Shown one piece after another: positions 5,309 through 15,360 of a stretch of DNA of 64,000 nucleotides. The stretch's first letter is position 1; each line of letters starts with the position of its first letter. The translations under genes and the position numbers were made by a program. Source of the DNA: a virus; IMG/VR virus record IMGVR_UViG_3300036820_000003, positions 1-64,000 of that record; one strand, 5' to 3'. The notes under the pieces are model-generated. The model was not told the DNA's origin and searched no databases. It saw only the letters and a list, made by a program, of their open reading frames with translations.

Positions 5309-5767
5309 GTGAGCGATGAAGGCGGAGCCGCCCTGTGGCTCGACCCCGGCGGCACGACCGGCATGGCCGCGTGGTTCTTCGAGACCGGCGAGTTTCGCAG
5401 CTGGCAGGAGGACTTCAAGGGAACCGGAGCGCGCATCGAGTCGCTGGCGTTTCACGTGAAACATCTGTCGATCGGCTACGAGCAATACAACATATCGCCT
5501 GGCCGCTACGTCCGGCACGACGGCTCGTCGCTGATGGTGATCGGCATGACCCGCTGGCTCGCGCTCGTGCACGGGGCCTCGATGCTTCCGTCACAGCCCC
5601 CGTCGGCCCGCAACCTGGGACTCAAGCATCTTAAAGTTCTCGGCTGGCACCGACCCGGACTCGGTCACGCAAATGACGCAGCAGCTCATTTGGCATCGTG
5701 GGCCATTTCAAATGATCTTCTACCCGAGGAACTGAAGGAGCGACTGCGTGGCAACAGCAGGGCTTGA
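5309..5767 (+). CDS. RuvC-like RNase H-fold nuclease
   Basis: 152 residues. LDPGGTTG near the N-terminus, a mid-chain EQY and a late HANDAAAHL supply the spaced acidic residues of phage RuvC-like resolvases. It probably cuts branched DNA made during recombination or replication. GTG start, no ribosome site, leaderless promoter. It overlaps the helicase gene by 20 bp. Sequence outside the motifs is too divergent to say whether it acts on Holliday junctions. Confidence 0.7.
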   Translation: MSDEGGAALWLDPGGTTGMAAWFFETGEFRSWQEDFKGTGARIESLAFHVKHLSIGYEQYNISPGRYVRHDGSSLMVIGMTRWLALVHGASMLPSQPPSARNLGLKHLKVLGWHRPGLGHANDAAAHLASWAISNDLLPEELKERLRGNSRA

Positions 5768-7514
5768 CGGCGACTGGATCAGCCTGGACTGCAGCTACAG
5801 TCAGAGGGATCTCGCACTCCAAATCCCGGGCGGTCGCTGGTCGAAGGAGTCCCAGCTATGGAACATGCCCCGAACCTGGGCCGCATGTTTGCAGCTACGC
5901 GGACTGTTCGGCTCGGATCTGGAGATGACCGAAGAGCTGCGGGAGTGGGCCGCCGAGCTGCGCGAGCAGCGGATTGACCCCGCGCTCCATTTGCGTGAAC
6001 AGCTAGTGTCCGGCGAGTTCCTGTCCCCCGTCGAGGAGTGCCTCCGGAAAATCGAGGACGGCTCGGGGTTGCGGCTCAAGGAGTTCCAGGTGGCGGACGT
6101 GGAATTCCTCGCCCTGTGCGGACAGGCTCTGCTCGCTAACCAGCCGGGCACGGGGAAGACGGCGGTCACCATCCGCACGCTCCAGGTGCTGAGCCGGATG
6201 GGGCTGGAGCCCTTCCCGACGCTGATCGTGTGCCCGAACAGCCTCAAGAACACGGTGTGGGCGCAGGAACTGGCCCGCTGGGCACCCGAGCTGACGCTCA
6301 CCGTCGTCGGAGGGACGGCGGGAGCCCGTCGCAAGCAGATCCTTACCGAGACTGACGTGACCGTCATCAACTACGAGAGTCTCCGACTGCACACGCGGGA
6401 GGAAGGCTACGGGACCATCCGGCTGAGTGACAAGTCGAAGGAGCGGAAGGAACTCAACGCCCGGGGATTCCGAACCGTCGTGTGCGACGAGGCGCATCGG
6501 ATGCGCAACCACGACACCGCCCTCACTCGCTCGGCCTGGGCGGTACTGCACGAGGCGGAGTACCGGTTCCTGCTGACGGGGACGCCGGTGAACAACCACT
6601 GCGGGGATCTGTGGGGGCTGATGCACGGGATCCTCCCCGACTGGCACCCTCGCTACACACGGTATCTAAGCCGCTACGGATTGCTAGGTTACAACTGGTT
6701 CGGGGGGACCGAGGTGCTGGGACTCCGGCCTGAGACTGCGGAGGAGTTCCGGGCGATCACCGAGCCGACTTATCGAAGAGTGCTCAAGACCGCCGTCCTC
6801 CCGCAGCTCCCCCCGAAGCTGCCGCCGTCCATCCGCGAGACCCCGATGTCGCCCAAGCAGGCGAAGGCGTACGCTCAGATGGAGGCGAACCTGCTGACGG
6901 TGCTGGACGACGGGGAGATCCTCGCCGCGCCCTCCGCACTCGCGCAGCTGACCCGTCTGCTGCAGTTCGCAGCCGCCGACGCGATGGTGGACGAGAAGGG
7001 CGAGGTGCAGTTGAAATCGCCCTCGTCGAAGGTCGATGACCTGCTGGAGTTCCTCGGGGAGATGGACGACGACGAGCCGCTGGTCGTCGCGGCGGTCAGC
7101 CGGAAGCTGATCGAGCTGGCGGCCGGGAAGCTGAAGGAAAAGGGCGTGAGGTACGGCCTGGTGACCGGGGCTGTCTCGACGGTCGAGCGGGCGAAGGCGG
7201 TGGCGGACTTCCAGGACGGTCGGTCGCGGGTGATCCTGCTGACGCTGGGTGCGGGCGCGGAGGGGCTGACCCTGACCCGAGCCAGTTGCATGCTGTTCAT
7301 GCAGCGCTCGTGGAGTCCGCTCGAAAACGAGCAGGCGGCTGACCGGATCCATCGAATTGGATCCGAAGTACACGAATCCATCCGATTCGTGTACCAGGTG
7401 ACACCAGGGACGGTGGAGAGTCGTGTCCGCGATGTGCTGGAGGCGAAGGAAGGTCGCATTCAGGAGATCTGGCATGACCGCGACGCGCTGAGGAGGCTGC
7501 TGGGAAATGGATGA
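5748..7514 (+). CDS. SNF2-family DNA helicase/translocase
   Basis: 588 residues with all superfamily 2 motifs in order: NQPGTGKT (I), TLIVCPNSL (Ia), VVCDEAHRM (II, DEAH), LLTGTPVNN (III), then the second RecA lobe with LGAGAEGLTLT (V) and QAADRIHRIG (VI). The N-terminal 110 residues resemble the short substrate domain of phage and SMARCAL1-type helicases. It should move along duplex DNA with ATP and probably assists replication-fork or recombination remodelling. GTG 5748 after AAGGAG. The ATG of the next gene overlaps its end. Confidence 0.85.
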   Translation: MATAGLDGDWISLDCSYSQRDLALQIPGGRWSKESQLWNMPRTWAACLQLRGLFGSDLEMTEELREWAAELREQRIDPALHLREQLVSGEFLSPVEECLRKIEDGSGLRLKEFQVADVEFLALCGQALLANQPGTGKTAVTIRTLQVLSRMGLEPFPTLIVCPNSLKNTVWAQELARWAPELTLTVVGGTAGARRKQILTETDVTVINYESLRLHTREEGYGTIRLSDKSKERKELNARGFRTVVCDEAHRMRNHDTALTRSAWAVLHEAEYRFLLTGTPVNNHCGDLWGLMHGILPDWHPRYTRYLSRYGLLGYNWFGGTEVLGLRPETAEEFRAITEPTYRRVLKTAVLPQLPPKLPPSIRETPMSPKQAKAYAQMEANLLTVLDDGEILAAPSALAQLTRLLQFAAADAMVDEKGEVQLKSPSSKVDDLLEFLGEMDDDEPLVVAAVSRKLIELAAGKLKEKGVRYGLVTGAVSTVERAKAVADFQDGRSRVILLTLGAGAEGLTLTRASCMLFMQRSWSPLENEQAADRIHRIGSEVHESIRFVYQVTPGTVESRVRDVLEAKEGRIQEIWHDRDALRRLLGNG

Positions 7515-7857
7515 CGACAGGCCGAATCCGGGGCTGCACCCCTTTGACTTGCAGGCTCCCGTCAAAATCCTGTATCCGCAGTACACGTTGCTCGGACGGG
7601 GACCGAAGATCGATCGGCTGCAACTGGGCCAGACGGCGGACACTGCTACCTTCGAACGGTTCAGCTACCCTGACGGGACCGTCGTGTTCCGGATCGAGGT
7701 CCCGTGTGACAGGGGTCATTGCTACACCTGCGAGTGCAGCACCGGTCATTACATAGATATGTCATTCGACCAGCTCATTGCAATGCGAGCGCTACTGGGA
7801 GTCGTCAATGGTGTGCAGGGAATGTCGTACAAGGAAGCACGAGGAATGCCGTGGTAG
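7507..7857 (+). CDS. Conserved-looking unknown protein
   Basis: 116 residues starting ATG 7507 inside the helicase stop region (8-bp overlap), so translation is coupled. A central HCYTCEC motif could bind one metal with nearby His. No family recognised. Confidence 0.6.
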   Translation: MDDDRPNPGLHPFDLQAPVKILYPQYTLLGRGPKIDRLQLGQTADTATFERFSYPDGTVVFRIEVPCDRGHCYTCECSTGHYIDMSFDQLIAMRALLGVVNGVQGMSYKEARGMPW

Positions 7858-7904
7858 TTCGTGGTGCGACTGCCAGCACATGCCTGTCAGGGAGGATTCC
7901 CCGA

Positions 7905-8441
7905 TTGAGATTCGCTTACGCTGACCCGCCCTATCTCGGCAAGGGCAGGAAGTTCTATTCCGAGCACCCCGACGCCGCTGAATGGGATGATCCAGCGACG
8001 CATGTCAAGCTAGTTGACCGGCTGTGCCAGGAGTTCCCTGACGGCTGGGCACTGTCCGCGTCGACACCCTCGCTAAGGGTCCTGCTGCCCGCATGCCCGA
8101 CGGATGTCCGCATCGCGGCTTGGGTGAAGCCGTTCTGCATCTTCAAGAAAGGCGTCCGTCCCGCCTACGCCTGGGAGCCGGTGCTATTCTGCGGAGGACG
8201 CAACAAGAATCACCCTCCGCCGCTCAAAGGCGGGAGGCAGACCACTCCGAAAGACTACATCGCAGAGGTGATCACCCTGCGGAGGGGTCTGGTGGGAGCT
8301 AAGCCCGAGAAGGTCTGCCGCTGGGTGCTGGACCTGCTCAACGTCCAGCCAGGGGACGAGGTTGTGGACTTGTTTCCCGGAACCGGCGCGATGAGCCGGG
8401 TGATCAGCGAGGTGTGCTCAGATGACGCTGACCGCACTTGA
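7905..8441 (+). CDS. DNA methyltransferase (DPPY type)
   Basis: 178 residues from TTG 7905, chosen because GGGAGG lies 9 nt upstream; the longer open frame overlaps the previous gene and looks non-coding. FAYADPPY is the catalytic motif IV of N6-adenine or N4-cytosine amino-methyltransferases. DLFPGTG near the C-terminus is the SAM-binding motif I, so the order is IV then I (beta-like). It overlaps the C5 methyltransferase gene by 20 bp. Probable role: modifying phage DNA against host restriction. Target base unknown. Confidence 0.8.
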   Translation: MRFAYADPPYLGKGRKFYSEHPDAAEWDDPATHVKLVDRLCQEFPDGWALSASTPSLRVLLPACPTDVRIAAWVKPFCIFKKGVRPAYAWEPVLFCGGRNKNHPPPLKGGRQTTPKDYIAEVITLRRGLVGAKPEKVCRWVLDLLNVQPGDEVVDLFPGTGAMSRVISEVCSDDADRT

Positions 8442-9093
8442 CCTGTTTTGCGGCGGGGGTGGCTCCGGCCTCGGCCTGATGCGAGCCGGGTTCGACCGGG
8501 TGATCGGCGTCGATGTGTCGGATCACGAGCGATCGTACTCGTCGTGGGGTGGGGAGTTCCACCGGATGGGATGGGAGGAGGGCCTCGCCCGCTTCGCGAT
8601 CGAGGCCGACCTCATCTGGGCGAGCCCGCCGTGTCACCGGTATTCTCGGATGACCAAGTGCATCCCCGGTCTGGCCGACACGAAGCCCGACCTGGTGGGA
8701 CCGGTGCGCGAGGCGCTGAGGGGGTCGGGGGCTCCGTGGATTATCGAGAACGTGGACGGGGCTCCCCTGCGGCACGCGATCATGCTATGCTGCTGGAGCT
8801 TCGGGTACGAAACTTACCGGCACCGGTACTTCGAAACGTCGCATCCCGTGCGCGAGAAGGAGCATCTGCCGCATGTCGTTCGAGGATCGCGCTCGGGTCA
8901 CTACGAGCCAGGGACGTTCATCTCGGTAGCGGGGCACTGCGACCCCATTGCCGAGGCCCGGCGGGTGATGGCGATAGACTGGATGTACCGGGACGAGCTG
9001 GTGGAGGCGATCCCGCCCTATATGGCCGAGTACGTGGGAAGGGAAATGATCCGTGCCGCTCAACTCGGAGTCACCGAGAGCGCAGATACTTAG
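8422..9093 (+). CDS. DNA (cytosine-5) methyltransferase
   Basis: 223 residues with the ordered motifs of the family: DLFCGGGGSGLGL (I), SPPCHRYS (IV, with the catalytic Cys in a PC pair), IIENVDG (VI), RHRYFE (VIII, variant of QRRYF) and IPPYMAEYVG (X). It is short, so the target-recognition domain between VIII and X is only about 60 residues, as in many phage enzymes. Coupled to the preceding methyltransferase. It transfers methyl from SAM to C5 of cytosine. Likely acts against host restriction. Confidence 0.85.
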   Translation: MTLTALDLFCGGGGSGLGLMRAGFDRVIGVDVSDHERSYSSWGGEFHRMGWEEGLARFAIEADLIWASPPCHRYSRMTKCIPGLADTKPDLVGPVREALRGSGAPWIIENVDGAPLRHAIMLCCWSFGYETYRHRYFETSHPVREKEHLPHVVRGSRSGHYEPGTFISVAGHCDPIAEARRVMAIDWMYRDELVEAIPPYMAEYVGREMIRAAQLGVTESADT

Positions 9094-9352
9094 CGAGGCT
9101 AAGGATCTTATCTGCGGGGACCGCAACGTCCAGTACGGGCCGCCTACGGCTGACTTCGATCGGATTGCGTCGCTGCTGAACGCGCTCGGCTACCAAGCTG
9201 GAGGTGGTCGCCCTATCGAATCGCACGACGTGGCGGTGATCCAGATCTGCCTCAAACTCAGTCGGCTGGCCTGGAAATCGCAGAAGAAAGACAGTTGGAC
9301 TGACATCATCGGGTACGCAGCATGCGGGTGGGAGTGCGTTGACGGTGACTGA
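9053..9352 (+). CDS. DUF6378-like protein
   Basis: 99 residues. The block DRNVQYGPPTADFDRIA, then SHDVAVIQICLKLSRL and SWTDIIGYAACGWE, is typical of the DUF6378 family found in many phages and sitting near nucleotide-metabolism genes. The helical pattern with conserved acids is reminiscent of MazG-type folds, but no reaction is established. GTG 9053 follows GGGAAGGG. It overlaps genes on both sides. Confidence 0.7.
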   Translation: MPLNSESPRAQILSEAKDLICGDRNVQYGPPTADFDRIASLLNALGYQAGGGRPIESHDVAVIQICLKLSRLAWKSQKKDSWTDIIGYAACGWECVDGD

Positions 9353-9833
9353 GCGGCCGGACTGGGACTCGTATTTCTTGGACATCTGCCGGGCGGTGGC
9401 GGCGCGGGCGGACTGCACTCGCCGTCGAGTGGGAGCCGTCATCGTCGATCGGAGCCATCGAATCTTGTCGTGCGGCTACAACGGCGCTCCCTCGGGGGAG
9501 CCAGGCTGCCTGAGTGACGGAGCATGCCCGCGCGGACGGCACTATCTCCTTGGTCGTGAGCTGCGACTGGACGCTTCCACAGGATCGCAGTGCGCCTGCG
9601 GAAACCGATGGCCGTGCCCGAATGCTGTGAGCCCGAGCAGCAGCTATGATTCAGGGCCGGGGACATGTCCGGGGATCCACGCTGAGATGAATGCGATAAT
9701 GTTTTCGAGCTGGGAGCCTCGTCAGGGCGGGGTTATCTACGTGACTTGCGTGCCGTGTCCCGGCTGCCGTAGGATGATCAGGGGGTCGGGGATCAAGCGG
9801 ATCGTGTGGCCGGAAGGAACTGAAATACTCTGA
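9339..9833 (+). CDS. Deoxycytidylate deaminase
   Basis: 164 residues. HAEMNA holds the catalytic Glu and first zinc ligand, and PCPGC supplies the two Cys. An extra Cys-rich loop (GCLSDGACPRG..., CACGNRWPC) before the core suggests a second zinc site, as in phage T4-type dCMP deaminases. It converts dCMP to dUMP, feeding thymidylate synthesis. Start TTG 9339 with GTG 9345 as alternative. Last gene of the 5309 operon. Confidence 0.85.
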   Translation: MTVTERPDWDSYFLDICRAVAARADCTRRRVGAVIVDRSHRILSCGYNGAPSGEPGCLSDGACPRGRHYLLGRELRLDASTGSQCACGNRWPCPNAVSPSSSYDSGPGTCPGIHAEMNAIMFSSWEPRQGGVIYVTCVPCPGCRRMIRGSGIKRIVWPEGTEIL

Positions 9834-9910: not shown

Positions 9911-9936
9911 GCTCCCCTTACGGCAAGGAGATGCCC

Positions 9937-10629
9937 ATGCCTGAAGAAGAGTCTACCATACAGAATGGCGTGGTAGCCATTAAGCGGATCGCCTCAGAGA
10001 CTATCTACGTTCCGTTGATCGGGACTTCGCCGCTCATCGTTAGCAAATTCTCGCAAAAGGCGAAGCGTCAGATGCTAGACGCACAGCAAGGACGAAAGAG
10101 CCCCCGGGAAGCGCGTAATCCGCAAGCGGAGTACGAGGCTTCCAAGTACGAGGGGAAGGACGACGGCGGGAACACCATCTACGGGTTCCCCGCCTCCGGG
10201 TTCAAGAACGCGACCGTCAGCGCGGCACGGTTCTATGGTCGGGACGTCAAGATGACGGAGCTACGGCAGTTCATCTTCGTCCGTGGACGCTACTTCCCGG
10301 AGGAGAAGCAGCAGTTCGCTGTCATCGAGGGCACCCCGAACATGCGCGAGGACTGCGTCCGCCTCGCCGGAGCCGGACGACCGGCTGATCTGCGTTATCG
10401 CGCGGAGTTCACTCCCTGGCGCGCTATTCTCGTAGTCACCTACGTCGCGTCGCTACTGTCCAAGGACTCAGTGCTGTCCCTCATCGACGCAGCGGGCATG
10501 GGCGTCGGGATCGGTGAGTGGCGACCGGAGCACAAGGGCGAGTTCGGCACGTTCCAGATCGACGAGAAGCGTGACCCGGCCGACATACTGGTTAATGTCA
10601 AGGCGTGCTACGGGGACGCCAATGGCTGA
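9937..10629 (+). CDS. Conserved phage protein, possible ferredoxin-like/RAMP fold
   Basis: 230 residues. ATG 9937 is preferred to ATG 9931 because AAGGAG sits 6 nt before it and directly abuts the other. Features: PLIGTSPLIVSKFS, a basic loop, GFPASGFKNATVSAAR, and near the end the Gly-rich stretch GMGVGIGEWRPEHKGEFG. This last pattern recalls Gly-rich loops of Cas7/RAMP-like proteins, but the likeness is weak. First gene of a two-gene operon with its own promoter; it sits just before the periodic array. Function unknown. Confidence 0.65.
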   Translation: MPEEESTIQNGVVAIKRIASETIYVPLIGTSPLIVSKFSQKAKRQMLDAQQGRKSPREARNPQAEYEASKYEGKDDGGNTIYGFPASGFKNATVSAARFYGRDVKMTELRQFIFVRGRYFPEEKQQFAVIEGTPNMREDCVRLAGAGRPADLRYRAEFTPWRAILVVTYVASLLSKDSVLSLIDAAGMGVGIGEWRPEHKGEFGTFQIDEKRDPADILVNVKACYGDANG

Positions 10630-11044
10630 CCTGCGAACCGAGCTTGCCAAGATTTACGAGCAATACGGCAAGCTCACTGCGGAGATCGTGCTAGAGGAGG
10701 CAACTCCGGTAGACCACCCGCTTCACTCCCAATTCACCTGGGACGACAGCGAGGCAGCTCGCCTGTACCGTCTCGAAGAAGCACGACGACTCATCCGAAT
10801 CGTCCGGGATCCCATCACCACGTCCAGTGGTGAGGTGGCGCGCGTCCGAACGTATCACTCACTCCCTCAGGAGGGTGGTGACCGTGCCTATCAGTCTACG
10901 GATGACATCGTGAAGGACGATATCTCCACGCAGATTCTTCTCCGGCAAGCCGAACGAGAGTACCGTACACTCCTCACGAAGTACGGTCATCTCAAGGAGT
11001 TCATCGAGATGGTGCGGGCGAGCCTGCTCGAAGAAGTAGCTTGA
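10622..11044 (+). CDS. Helical protein of unknown function
   Basis: 140 residues, mostly charged helices with likely coiled coil at both ends. HPLHSQFTWDDSEAA and the following Arg-rich helix recur in many actinophage hypothetical proteins as far as I recall. ATG 10622 overlaps the previous stop by 8 bp. It ends where the periodic array begins, so array transcripts could start in this operon. Confidence 0.7.
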   Translation: MADLRTELAKIYEQYGKLTAEIVLEEATPVDHPLHSQFTWDDSEAARLYRLEEARRLIRIVRDPITTSSGEVARVRTYHSLPQEGGDRAYQSTDDIVKDDISTQILLRQAEREYRTLLTKYGHLKEFIEMVRASLLEEVA

Positions 11045-11054
11045 CATAAGTGTT

Positions 11055-11705
11055 ACGGTGCGGTACGGCAGTCGAGTCAAGGCACGGAGTGTTCAGGCGG
11101 GGTTAGTTAGGGTTTGTTACGGTGATGTCTGGTGCGTCGGGTGTGGTTGAGCAGTCGAGGTGAGGTGTCGCGAGTCACGTCATGGCTTGGCGGTGTACGT
11201 CAGTCGAGGCGATGTACTGTATCGTGAGGCGCGGGTAGGTCATGTCCGTTCGGGTATGGTCAGGTAAGTCAGTCTAGGTGCGGTTTCGTGGGGTGTCGCG
11301 GGGACAGGTTAGGCTGGGTGCGGCAGTCAAGGCGATGTGCGGTTTCGCGGGGCACAGTCCGTTTTGGCATGGTGTGGCAGTCGCGGTGAAGTGCGGGTTG
11401 GCGGGGTCTGTTACGGTGTAGTCAGTTCGGGCGTGGTATGGTCGGGCAGTCTAGGTTTGGCTAGGTTGGGTCAGTTCGTGCGCGGTTCGGCGTGGCTTGG
11501 CGGTCACGGTACTGCGTGGCGTGGCTAGGCTCGGCAGTTATGGCCCGGCTTGGTAGAGTATGGTATGTCCTGGTGTGGTCAGGTAAGTCAGTTACGGCGG
11601 GGTTTGGCTTATCAAGGCGTGGCCCGTCAAGGTGAGTCATGGCAGTCCAGGTAAGGTGTGTTTGGGTCTGTCATGGTCAGGTCTGGTGGGGCAGTCAAGG
11701 TTCGG
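11055..11705 (+). repeat. Degenerate array of GG every 5 nt with CAGTC/CAGTT joints
   Basis: About 650 bp without a credible gene. On the plus strand GG recurs every five bases while the other three positions vary. The phase slips by about one base at each CAGT(C/T) joint. Joints start at 11069, 11152, 11201, 11270, 11324, 11355, 11378, 11423, 11447, 11472, 11535, 11589, 11643 and 11692; the spacing is 54 nt three times and 49 nt twice. A 17-nt exact repeat occurs at 11257 and 11576. The strand is strongly G/T-rich. It ends at the promoter of the DNA polymerase gene. See findings. Confidence 0.8.
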
Positions 11706-11706
11706 A

Positions 11707-11715
11707 TGCTATACT
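11707..11715 (+). promoter_or_regulatory. Extended -10 promoter of the DNA polymerase gene
   Basis: TGCTATACT: the TATACT box is at 11710-11715 with TGC just before it. Six bases later comes ATG 11722, so a leaderless transcript is expected. No -35 is obvious; the last CAGTC joint of the array ends only 11 bp upstream. Confidence 0.6.
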
Positions 11716-11721
11716 TAGGAC

Positions 11722-14086: not shown

Positions 14087-14378
14087 CTTCGTCCGCTCCT
14101 AGTTGCAGCAGCCTCCGCACCCACGCCAGATCCGGCAGCACAACAGGCCGGGCTGCGGGCGCGTCGGCCGGCTTGAGCAGGATGTCCTGCTTCCACGGCT
14201 CGGCATAATATGCGTTGTCCGAATGCGAGTTGTTGCTTCGCAGGCAGATAGTCCTGTCAGCGCGAATGCCGTTCAGGTACACTCCGCAGAACTGCTTGAC
14301 CTCCTCGATCTCGAAGTTCTTTTCGAGCGGCAAGATCAGATAATCCCTGATTCCGATCTTATACTGATAGACTGTCAT
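14079..14378 (-). CDS. Unknown protein
   Basis: 99 residues; begins MTVYQYKIGIRDYLILPLEK with alternating hydrophobics suggesting a beta sheet, and ends in an acidic helix. AAGGAAGC precedes ATG 14378. Overlaps the nuclease gene stop by 20 bp. Confidence 0.6.
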   Translation of the reverse strand: MTVYQYKIGIRDYLILPLEKNFEIEEVKQFCGVYLNGIRADRTICLRSNNSHSDNAYYAEPWKQDILLKPADAPAARPVVLPDLAWVRRLLQLGADEDE

Positions 14379-15360
14379 GCTTCCTTCCGAATTCCGTCAG
14401 AATCTCATCGATTGCACGGTCTGCGTATCTCGCGTACGGATCTACCTGCACGTAGTTGCCTCGCATGGCATCCTCGGCCCGGGATCCGTCGTCCCACATG
14501 CTGCAGACGGAGCTGAAGGGGCAGTACCACTGGCAGTCGTCACCCTCGACGTACCGTACGACGCTTTGATGATACTCGCCCGCCTCGATTCTCGCCCGCG
14601 CGTCCCGGATCTCGGTCGCGAGCTGTCGCACCCGCAGCCAGGTGGAATTGAGGTCGTGCCGGTTGTAGGCAAACTCCACTACCTGGTAGAACGGCCCCTT
14701 CGCACGCGGCGTTCGTTTTGATCGCAGCAGCATGACGTACTGCCCGCCGTCGGGACGACGGAGATGAGGCGTGTCAAGCGCCTGCAGCGCCTGAATCATG
14801 GTGTAGGTTTTCATCTGCGTGCTGATCGCCAGCCGGTCGGCCTTCGAAAAAGTTCCGACCGTCTTGTAGTCCCGGAAGAACACGGCTCCGTCGTCAAGTC
14901 TACGGACGAGCGCGTCCAGCTTGCAGATGAGCCGGAACTCCCCCCCGTCCGTCATGAACGGGAGGGTCACCGACGTCTCGCGCTCCGTGGCAATCACCTC
15001 GTACCCCGAGTTGTATCCCTCCTCGGCCGCCCAGTCGAGGAACCCCTCCAGCATCGCGAAGGCAAGCTCGCGTTCCTTCAGCAGATCGCCCTCCTCGCCG
15101 GACTCCTCTATCGCCCTGCGATAGATGAAATCGAGAGCGTCGAGTCCGGGTATCCCGTGTCCCTCGTGCGCTTCGAGCGCTAGGTGCAGCCGGGTGCCGA
15201 GGAGCGCGGATCCGGTCACAGGGGCGGTGACCGGATCCCGTCCCCACCTCAGGTACGTCCCCAGGTACCAGCGACGCGGGCAGCGCGCCCACGTCGCCAG
15301 TTCCGAGTGCGATAGAGTCAGAAGGTCATCCTGACTGCGGCCTGCGTTCGAGCTGATCAC
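14359..15360 (-). CDS. PD-(D/E)XK nuclease, Cas4/RecB-like
   Basis: 333 residues. LSHSELATWARCPRRWYLGTYL is the N-terminal Cys-containing motif. The catalytic core has FFRDYKTVG (the D...K pair) after a long helical part. The C-terminus has CQWYCPFSSVCSMW, giving three Cys that with the first could bind an iron-sulfur cluster as in Cas4/AddB. It is an exonuclease expected to process DNA ends in replication or recombination. GTG 15360 lies within the preceding gene's stop region (35-bp overlap). Confidence 0.8.
   Translation of the reverse strand: MISSNAGRSQDDLLTLSHSELATWARCPRRWYLGTYLRWGRDPVTAPVTGSALLGTRLHLALEAHEGHGIPGLDALDFIYRRAIEESGEEGDLLKERELAFAMLEGFLDWAAEEGYNSGYEVIATERETSVTLPFMTDGGEFRLICKLDALVRRLDDGAVFFRDYKTVGTFSKADRLAISTQMKTYTMIQALQALDTPHLRRPDGGQYVMLLRSKRTPRAKGPFYQVVEFAYNRHDLNSTWLRVRQLATEIRDARARIEAGEYHQSVVRYVEGDDCQWYCPFSSVCSMWDDGSRAEDAMRGNYVQVDPYARYADRAIDEILTEFGRKHDSLSV

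What the first reader, a model, noticed from the sequence alone, without database searches (positions are those of the whole stretch)
11055..11705. A 650-bp array in which only GG spacing is conserved: GGNNN repeated, with phase-shifting CAGTC joints
Seen: on the plus strand GG returns every 5 nt over long stretches, while the three bases between vary freely. Fourteen CAGT(C/T) joints occur, often 54 nt apart (11270 to 11324, 11535 to 11589, 11589 to 11643), and the GG phase moves by about one base at each joint, as expected if a unit is ten pentamers plus 4 nt. So spacing, not sequence, seems to be kept. There is no ORF, and it ends at the leaderless promoter of the DNA polymerase. Inference: a binding track for a protein that takes 5 nt per subunit. 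TRAP, an 11-subunit ring, reads (G/U)AG triplets spaced to give a 5-nt period, and about 54 nt per unit is near 11 x 5. Other options are a two-tier G-quadruplex-prone RNA or ssDNA, or an origin. I know of no described element with this grammar.
Basis: partly seen in the sequence, partly recalled or inferred. Interest (0 to 1): 0.88.

Follow-up and report, generated by a model that had tools for sequence, protein, structure and literature searches.

The report
Phage VIPR guide-RNA array, actinophage member
The strange GG-every-five-bases stretch is the guide-RNA array of a VIPR system, a relative of CRISPR described in a 2026 preprint that phages use against rival phages; this is a new, tail-less example of it, with relatives in phages of laboratory Mycobacterium and Gordonia strains.

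Summary
In detail: GG recurs at 5 nt (z 7.3 against dinucleotide shuffles), with a one-base register slip at CAGT joints. It is not a TRAP track, a G-quadruplex or an origin. The two genes just upstream are a Vipr protein (9931-10629; profile hit to PDB 36pp 'SUSP1 Vipr', E=6e-12; fold matches to CRISPR Cas7 proteins) and an accessory Vap gene (10622-11044). The array is therefore a vrRNA array of a Viral Interference Programmable Repeat (VIPR) system (preprint PMC13142463): GGY positions are held by Vipr, and NN positions spell a DNA target with one skipped base per repeat. Of 100 loci fetched by Vipr similarity alone, 95 carry such an array on the gene's strand; 0 of 40 control loci do. I parsed the window array into 12 complete units of n pentamers plus one tetramer (ten of them with 9-13 pentamers), with no SUSP1-like 3' tail. 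Over 987 units from many arrays, the one-base-skip rule gave 30 strong target hits against 1-7 for other skips and 0-8 for shuffles; several guides hit rivals' vipr genes. No convincing target was found for the window's own guides. Kind already known; new member.

The parts
9931..10629 (+). vipr gene: Cas7/RAMP-like protein, 232 aa (phrog_4652, unknown function in PHROGs), with glycine-rich loop GIGEWRPEHKGEFGTF
   Evidence: PHROG match 1.4e-30; profile hit to PDB 36pp 'SUSP1 Vipr protein' E=6e-12; AF2 model pLDDT 83, Foldseek best hits Cas7 of type VII and Csm3 of type III-A CRISPR, prob 1.0 but TM only 0.4-0.5
10622..11044 (+). vap gene (vipr-accessory protein), 140 aa, start codon overlaps the vipr stop; phrog_15946, motif F.WDDS.AA..YRL..AR
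   Evidence: PHROG match 8e-24; relatives on the same strand just upstream of 15 of 37 array loci; not alignable with SUSP1 vap; no solved fold
11057..11708 (+). vrRNA array: GGYNN pentamers in 12 complete units separated by tetramer joints, one partial unit at each end
   Evidence: GG autocorrelation, segmentation, positional conservation
11071..11139 (+). unit 1: 13 pentamers + joint GTCG
11140..11153 (+). unit 2: short, 2 pentamers + joint AGCA (remnant or parsing uncertainty)
11154..11202 (+). unit 3: 9 pentamers + joint GTCA
11203..11271 (+). unit 4: 13 pentamers + joint GTCA; NN read as codons resemble the Vap motif WDDTIAA..YR.HQ (weak, not significant)
11272..11325 (+). unit 5: 10 pentamers + joint GGCA
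11326..11379 (+). unit 6: 10 pentamers + joint GGCA; shares NN core GC-TT-GG with units 5 and 7
11380..11448 (+). unit 7: 13 pentamers + joint GGCA; NN read as codons A[DE]A[FL]GLTV[HQ]RV[IM]R, helix-turn-helix-like (weak)
11449..11502 (+). unit 8: 10 pentamers + joint GGCG
11503..11536 (+). unit 9: 6 pentamers + joint GGCA
11537..11590 (+). unit 10: 10 pentamers + joint GTCA; antisense codon reading resembles the family A polymerase motif CT.MML.GI (weak)
11591..11644 (+). unit 11: 10 pentamers + joint GGCA
11645..11693 (+). unit 12: 9 pentamers + joint GGCA

Best explanation
The locus is a phage VIPR system: vipr (9931-10629), vap (10622-11044) and a vrRNA array (11057-11708) on one strand. 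Inferred working: the array is transcribed downstream of vipr-vap. Vipr, a small Cas7-like protein, coats each guide with one subunit per GGYNN pentamer, holding GGY. The exposed NN pairs base-pair with DNA under the rule NN-x-NN-x (three target bases per five guide bases, the skipped base often at codon wobble positions), so a unit of 9-13 pentamers reads 18-26 letters over about 27-39 bp and represses or blocks a competing phage or prophage gene. Each tetramer joint (GGCA/GTCA) shifts the GG register by -1 and so separates one guide from the next. Shown here: the genes, the array grammar, the linkage, and for relatives the one-base-skip matches. Inferred from the preprint on SUSP1 and P. fulva systems: RNA expression, RNP formation, repression and anti-phage use. 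Targets of the window's own guides are not identified.
For: Vipr homology by profile to solved SUSP1 Vipr and fold to Cas7/Csm3. Neighbour analysis: vap-type gene in 15/37 and vipr-type gene in 13/37 array loci, all on the same strand. Reverse test: of 100 loci pulled by Vipr similarity only, 95 carry an array on the gene's strand; in all 93 in which the gene could be placed it lies within 2 kb (median 310 nt); 0 of 40 loci fetched with unrelated patterns do. GC of these loci spans 0.39-0.73 and the host records several phyla. Pentamer positions 1-3 carry 1.4/1.1/0.8 bits, positions 4-5 about 0 (the segmentation favours 1-3, the near-zero at 4-5 is not biased by it). Skip-rule test on 987 units: hits p<1e-8 are 7/30/1/4/6 for skips 0-4; shuffled skip-1 controls 2, 0, 7, 8. 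Rival vipr genes as targets: 5 of 989 units below 1e-8 against 0 shuffled. Published description.
Against: No target was found for the window's guides: pattern scans gave at most 23/26 and 18/20 matches, of chance quality; two guides gave nothing in 396 actinobacterial genomes at up to 3 mismatches. There is no 3' tail like SUSP1's, and the vap is not alignable with SUSP1's vap. The Foldseek TM-scores to Cas7 are only 0.4-0.5. No RNA data exist for this phage. Five of 100 Vipr loci lack a detected array, two of them cut by contig ends.
Confidence: 0.95

Rival explanations
1. TRAP-like or other ring protein track: an RNA leader with 5-nt spaced triplets binds a ring protein that controls transcription of the DNA polymerase gene.
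For: 5-nt period; about 11 pentamers per 54 nt; array sits just before the polymerase gene.
Against: TRAP triplets need A at position 2 of (G/U)AG; position 2 is G or T in 120 of 120 window pentamers. The linked protein is Cas7-like. Array length ranges from under 200 nt to over 3 kb in relatives and the gene downstream varies, while vipr is constant.
Confidence: 0.01
2. DNA element: replication origin, G-quadruplex-forming stretch or recombination hotspot read as DNA.
For: G-rich strand; near DNA polymerase and exonuclease genes in the window; two-tier G-quadruplex spacing is possible.
Against: Position 3 is a conserved pyrimidine and the register slips by exactly one base only at a GGCA-like tetramer. 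Relatives sit near tail, lysogeny or replication genes, but always with vipr. Target matches under one specific reading rule are unexplained.
Confidence: 0.01
3. Degenerate VIPR array: this copy is a decaying remnant without function.
For: GG is less perfect in the window (position 1 G 85%, position 2 G 76%) than over all arrays (91% and 82%); two short units (2 and 6 pentamers); no target found.
Against: vipr and vap are intact and conserved; ten units keep 9-13 pentamers in register; GT for GG is common in other arrays too (first pentamer GTC in 270 parsed units).
Confidence: 0.03

Closest known systems
VIPR system of Escherichia phage SUSP1 (type II; PMC13142463, PDB 36pp)
   Same: Cas7-like Vipr with the GxGxWRP loop, adjacent accessory gene, GGYNN tandem repeats on the gene's strand, 9-16 repeats per guide
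   Different: SUSP1 has separate guides of about 100 nt, each with a conserved structured 3' tail, and guides both upstream and downstream of the genes; the window has tail-less units abutting head to tail through a tetramer joint; the accessory proteins are not alignable
VIPR 'staggered arrays with overlapping vrRNAs' (preprint, fig. S18, not readable here)
   Same: possibly the same architecture: many guides in one continuous array with register shifts
   Different: over 445 joints in related arrays the GG register switches sharply, with no GG left in the old register, so the guides look end-to-end rather than overlapping at DNA level; the preprint's figure could not be checked
VIPR loci of mycobacteriophages (Saal, Brocalys, Mattes and others) and Gordonia phages (UmaThurman, Ecliptus, ODay, Pipp), found here
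   Same: Vipr 42-58% identical, GGCNN units ending in a GGCA tetramer
   Different: near-perfect GGC in the mycobacteriophages, and arrays between or before the genes; the window array is looser, with GT starts, and lies after vap
CRISPR Class 1 effector subunits (Cas7/Csm3)
   Same: predicted fold and guide-coating role
   Different: one short protein, no CRISPR repeats, pentamer instead of 6-nt periodicity, gapped code

Membership tests
VIPR system | Vipr protein: small RAMP homologue with glycine loop | tested here: met
   Profile to SUSP1 Vipr E=6e-12; Cas7-like fold; invariant G189, G193, G195, R198, G206 in A1
VIPR system | Guide RNA of alternating GGY and hypervariable NN, 9-16 repeats | tested here: met
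   Ten units of 9-13 GGYNN pentamers, plus two short ones; positions 4-5 about 0.05 bits
VIPR system | Accessory vap gene in a minimal two-gene locus | tested here: met
   Gene 10622-11044 directly after vipr, conserved next to arrays; which of vap1-6 it is could not be assigned
VIPR system | Noncontiguous DNA recognition with one skipped base per repeat | tested here: inconclusive
   Supported for arrays of relatives; no target found for the window's guides
VIPR system | Guides expressed and bound by Vipr | not testable with these tools
   No RNA data
VIPR type II (SUSP1-like) | Invariable structured 3' tail after the repeats; vap1 | tested here: not met
   No recurring tail between units; vap not alignable with SUSP1's
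TRAP binding site | (G/U)AG triplets at 5-nt period | tested here: not met
   A at position 2 in 0 of 120 pentamers
CRISPR array | Near-identical repeats separated by spacers | tested here: not met
   Repeat families are only 60-85% alike and reflect the pentamer grammar

The most novel reading that the evidence does not exclude
The window belongs to a widespread tail-less VIPR architecture in which guides abut head to tail and a single tetramer (GGCA or GTCA) both ends a guide and resets the repeat register, so that register slip itself marks guide boundaries; and guides encoded next to vipr are often aimed at the vipr genes of rival phages.
Probability: 0.35. Interest if true: 0.6.

Novelty: new member of a known kind. 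Interest (0 to 1): 0.55.

Why it matters
VIPR was reported as an RNA-guided system with a gapped code, proposed to predate CRISPR, and shown experimentally for Proteobacterial phages and prophages. This locus and its relatives provide (1) support, independent of the preprint's data, for the one-base-skip code, from loci chosen only by sequence; (2) a tail-less array architecture with a simple boundary rule; (3) native systems in phages of M. smegmatis mc2 155 and Gordonia terrae, where guide expression and targeting can be tested in standard laboratory strains; and (4) examples of guides aimed at rivals' vipr genes.

Tried and rejected
TRAP, G-quadruplex, origin and coding interpretations (see rivals). 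Rfam: no family. PADLOC and NCBIfam: no family for either protein; Pfam: none. BLAST of the array and of window 1-24000 against phage records: none. DNA-pattern scans for targets of units 4, 6, 7 and 10 in IMG/VR: unit 6 none; unit 7 three loci, 21-22/26; unit 4 best 23/26 in an unrelated gene; unit 10 best 18/20; all consistent with chance given the size of the collection. Units 4 and 7 in 396 actinobacterial genomes: none. Self-targeting in the phage's whole 130-kb record: best full-length unit 19/26, so none convincing; the six-pentamer unit 9 scores 11/12, which is uninformative at that length. Codon readings of units 1, 4, 7 and 10 as integrase, vap, helix-turn-helix and polymerase motifs are suggestive only. 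Foldseek of Vap: nothing. The RNA fold of the array is somewhat more stable than shuffles (z -2.6, 20 shuffles), not pursued. The preprint's supplement could not be opened.

Full report
WHAT WAS CHECKED. The described pattern is in the sequence. Autocorrelation of GG on the plus strand over 11041-11720 peaks at 5, 10, 49 and 54 nt with z of about 7-9 against dinucleotide shuffles, and non-multiples are depleted. A dynamic-programming parse gives 12 complete units, each n pentamers of the form G(G/T)YNN followed by one tetramer (GGCA, GTCA, AGCA, GTCG or GGCG): n = 13, 2, 9, 13, 10, 10, 13, 10, 6, 10, 10, 9. The free positions are two, not three: position 3 is C or T in 96% of window pentamers.

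WHAT IT IS LINKED TO. A motif scan of IMG/VR returned 119 loci, about a third of which contain such arrays (37 array loci other than the window were used for neighbour analysis). Two protein families recurred just upstream, always on the same strand: relatives of window 10622-11044 (15 of 37) and of 9931-10629 (13 of 37) (these counts include the window itself). The reverse test does not use the array: 100 loci were fetched by similarity to the second of these proteins (Vipr), and 95 of them carry a GG-period-5 array on the same strand; in all 93 in which the gene could be placed, the array is within 2 kb (median 310 nt). Forty loci fetched with unrelated patterns carry none. The loci range from 39 to 73% GC and include genome records from Actinobacteria, Alphaproteobacteria, Planctomycetota, Bacteroidota, Firmicutes and Verrucomicrobia.

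IDENTIFICATION. A profile of the protein family matches one solved structure by sequence, PDB 36pp 'SUSP1 Vipr protein' (E=6e-12). The AlphaFold2 model (pLDDT 83) is most similar to Cas7 subunits of CRISPR types VII and III-A, with modest TM-scores. The literature search found one paper, PMC13142463 (a preprint of April, version 2 of June 2026), which describes VIPR: Vipr, an accessory vap gene, and vrRNAs of 9-16 YNNGG repeats whose NN dinucleotides read DNA with one skipped base per repeat; the system represses competing phages. The window locus fits point by point.

THE CODE, TESTED SEPARATELY. For 987 array units, the NN letters were searched in 2.08 Mb of fetched phage DNA outside arrays with 0-4 skipped bases. 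Strong hits (p<1e-8) numbered 7, 30, 1, 4 and 6; order-shuffled guides at skip 1 gave 2, 0, 7 and 8. The 30 hits come from 12 units and include repeats of one guide on homologous genes, so they are not 30 independent events. The clearest case is a 14-pentamer guide in L123 that runs exactly from joint to joint and matches the antisense strand of the glycine-loop end of rival vipr genes (25/28 in L135, 24/28 in L144, L147 and L165), with the skipped base at the wobble position. Guides in L126, L133 and L163, which also lie directly after vipr, match other vipr genes at 17-19 of 18-20 letters. Against 96 vipr ORFs, 5 of 989 units fall below 1e-8 and none of the shuffled ones do. [quoted passage not shown]

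ARCHITECTURE. In 445 well-formed joints the GG register switches sharply: the old register disappears at the joint, and GG in the new register is at background before it. Units in mycobacteriophages are clean n x GGCNN + GGCA, and whole units are gained or lost between close relatives: Donkeykong has two extra units and ByChance lacks one. In seven homologous non-identical unit pairs (72 pentamers), differences at the five pentamer positions were 1, 0, 4, 11 and 4, so GG is kept while the other bases drift (small sample). SUSP1 instead has separate guides with a recurring 3' tail and an accessory protein not alignable with this one. The window is therefore not SUSP1-like (type II). Whether it is the preprint's 'staggered' architecture or a further one cannot be told without its supplement.

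WHAT IS NOT SHOWN. Nothing here shows transcription, RNP formation or repression by the window's system. No convincing target of its guides was found, and no convincing self-target exists in its 130-kb record. Units 5, 6 and 7 share an NN core (GC-TT-GG), which suggests related targets. Readings of units 4, 7 and 10 as vap, helix-turn-helix and polymerase motifs are leads only.

VERDICT. The kind was described before this analysis, so this is a new member of a known kind. It is of interest because it adds an unusual array architecture, support for the gapped code from other loci, and natural systems in laboratory phages.

Noticed in passing
L265 596-784, L266 596-784, L277 630-794, L276 629-871, L269 483-869, L261 4640-4963, L281 2126-2395: Short CDSs annotated as hypothetical proteins in mycobacteriophage and Gordonia phage records lie inside the vrRNA arrays and are probably not genes.
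   Followed up: partly
L123 5617, L126 5659, L133 5650, L163 5616: The guide encoded directly after vipr matches the vipr genes of other phages; one aims at the stretch encoding the glycine loop, with skipped bases at wobble positions.
   Followed up: yes
L145 5580-9790; L171 7290-10380: Detected arrays span 3-4 kb, which would mean many tens of guides in one phage.
   Followed up: no
L139, L183, L185, L211, L216: Vipr relatives without a detected array; L139 and L216 are cut by contig ends, the others may use another repeat consensus.
   Followed up: no
G000 90608-94957 (L283, beyond the window): 1449-aa ORF with ...RGYCLGPDTQVLCSDFQWRPVISLA near its start looks like an intein inside a terminase- or portal-type gene.
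   Followed up: no
G000 74480-75703 and about 122740-125035 (beyond the window): A radical-SAM-like ORF (CNLDCDYCYMY) and a cluster resembling heptose kinase, nucleotidyltransferase and SIS isomerase genes in the same phage record.
   Followed up: no
5748-9833: SNF2-type helicase, cytosine methyltransferase-like and deaminase-like ORFs precede the VIPR locus; a PD-(D/E)XK exonuclease lies at 14359-15360 on the other strand.
   Followed up: no
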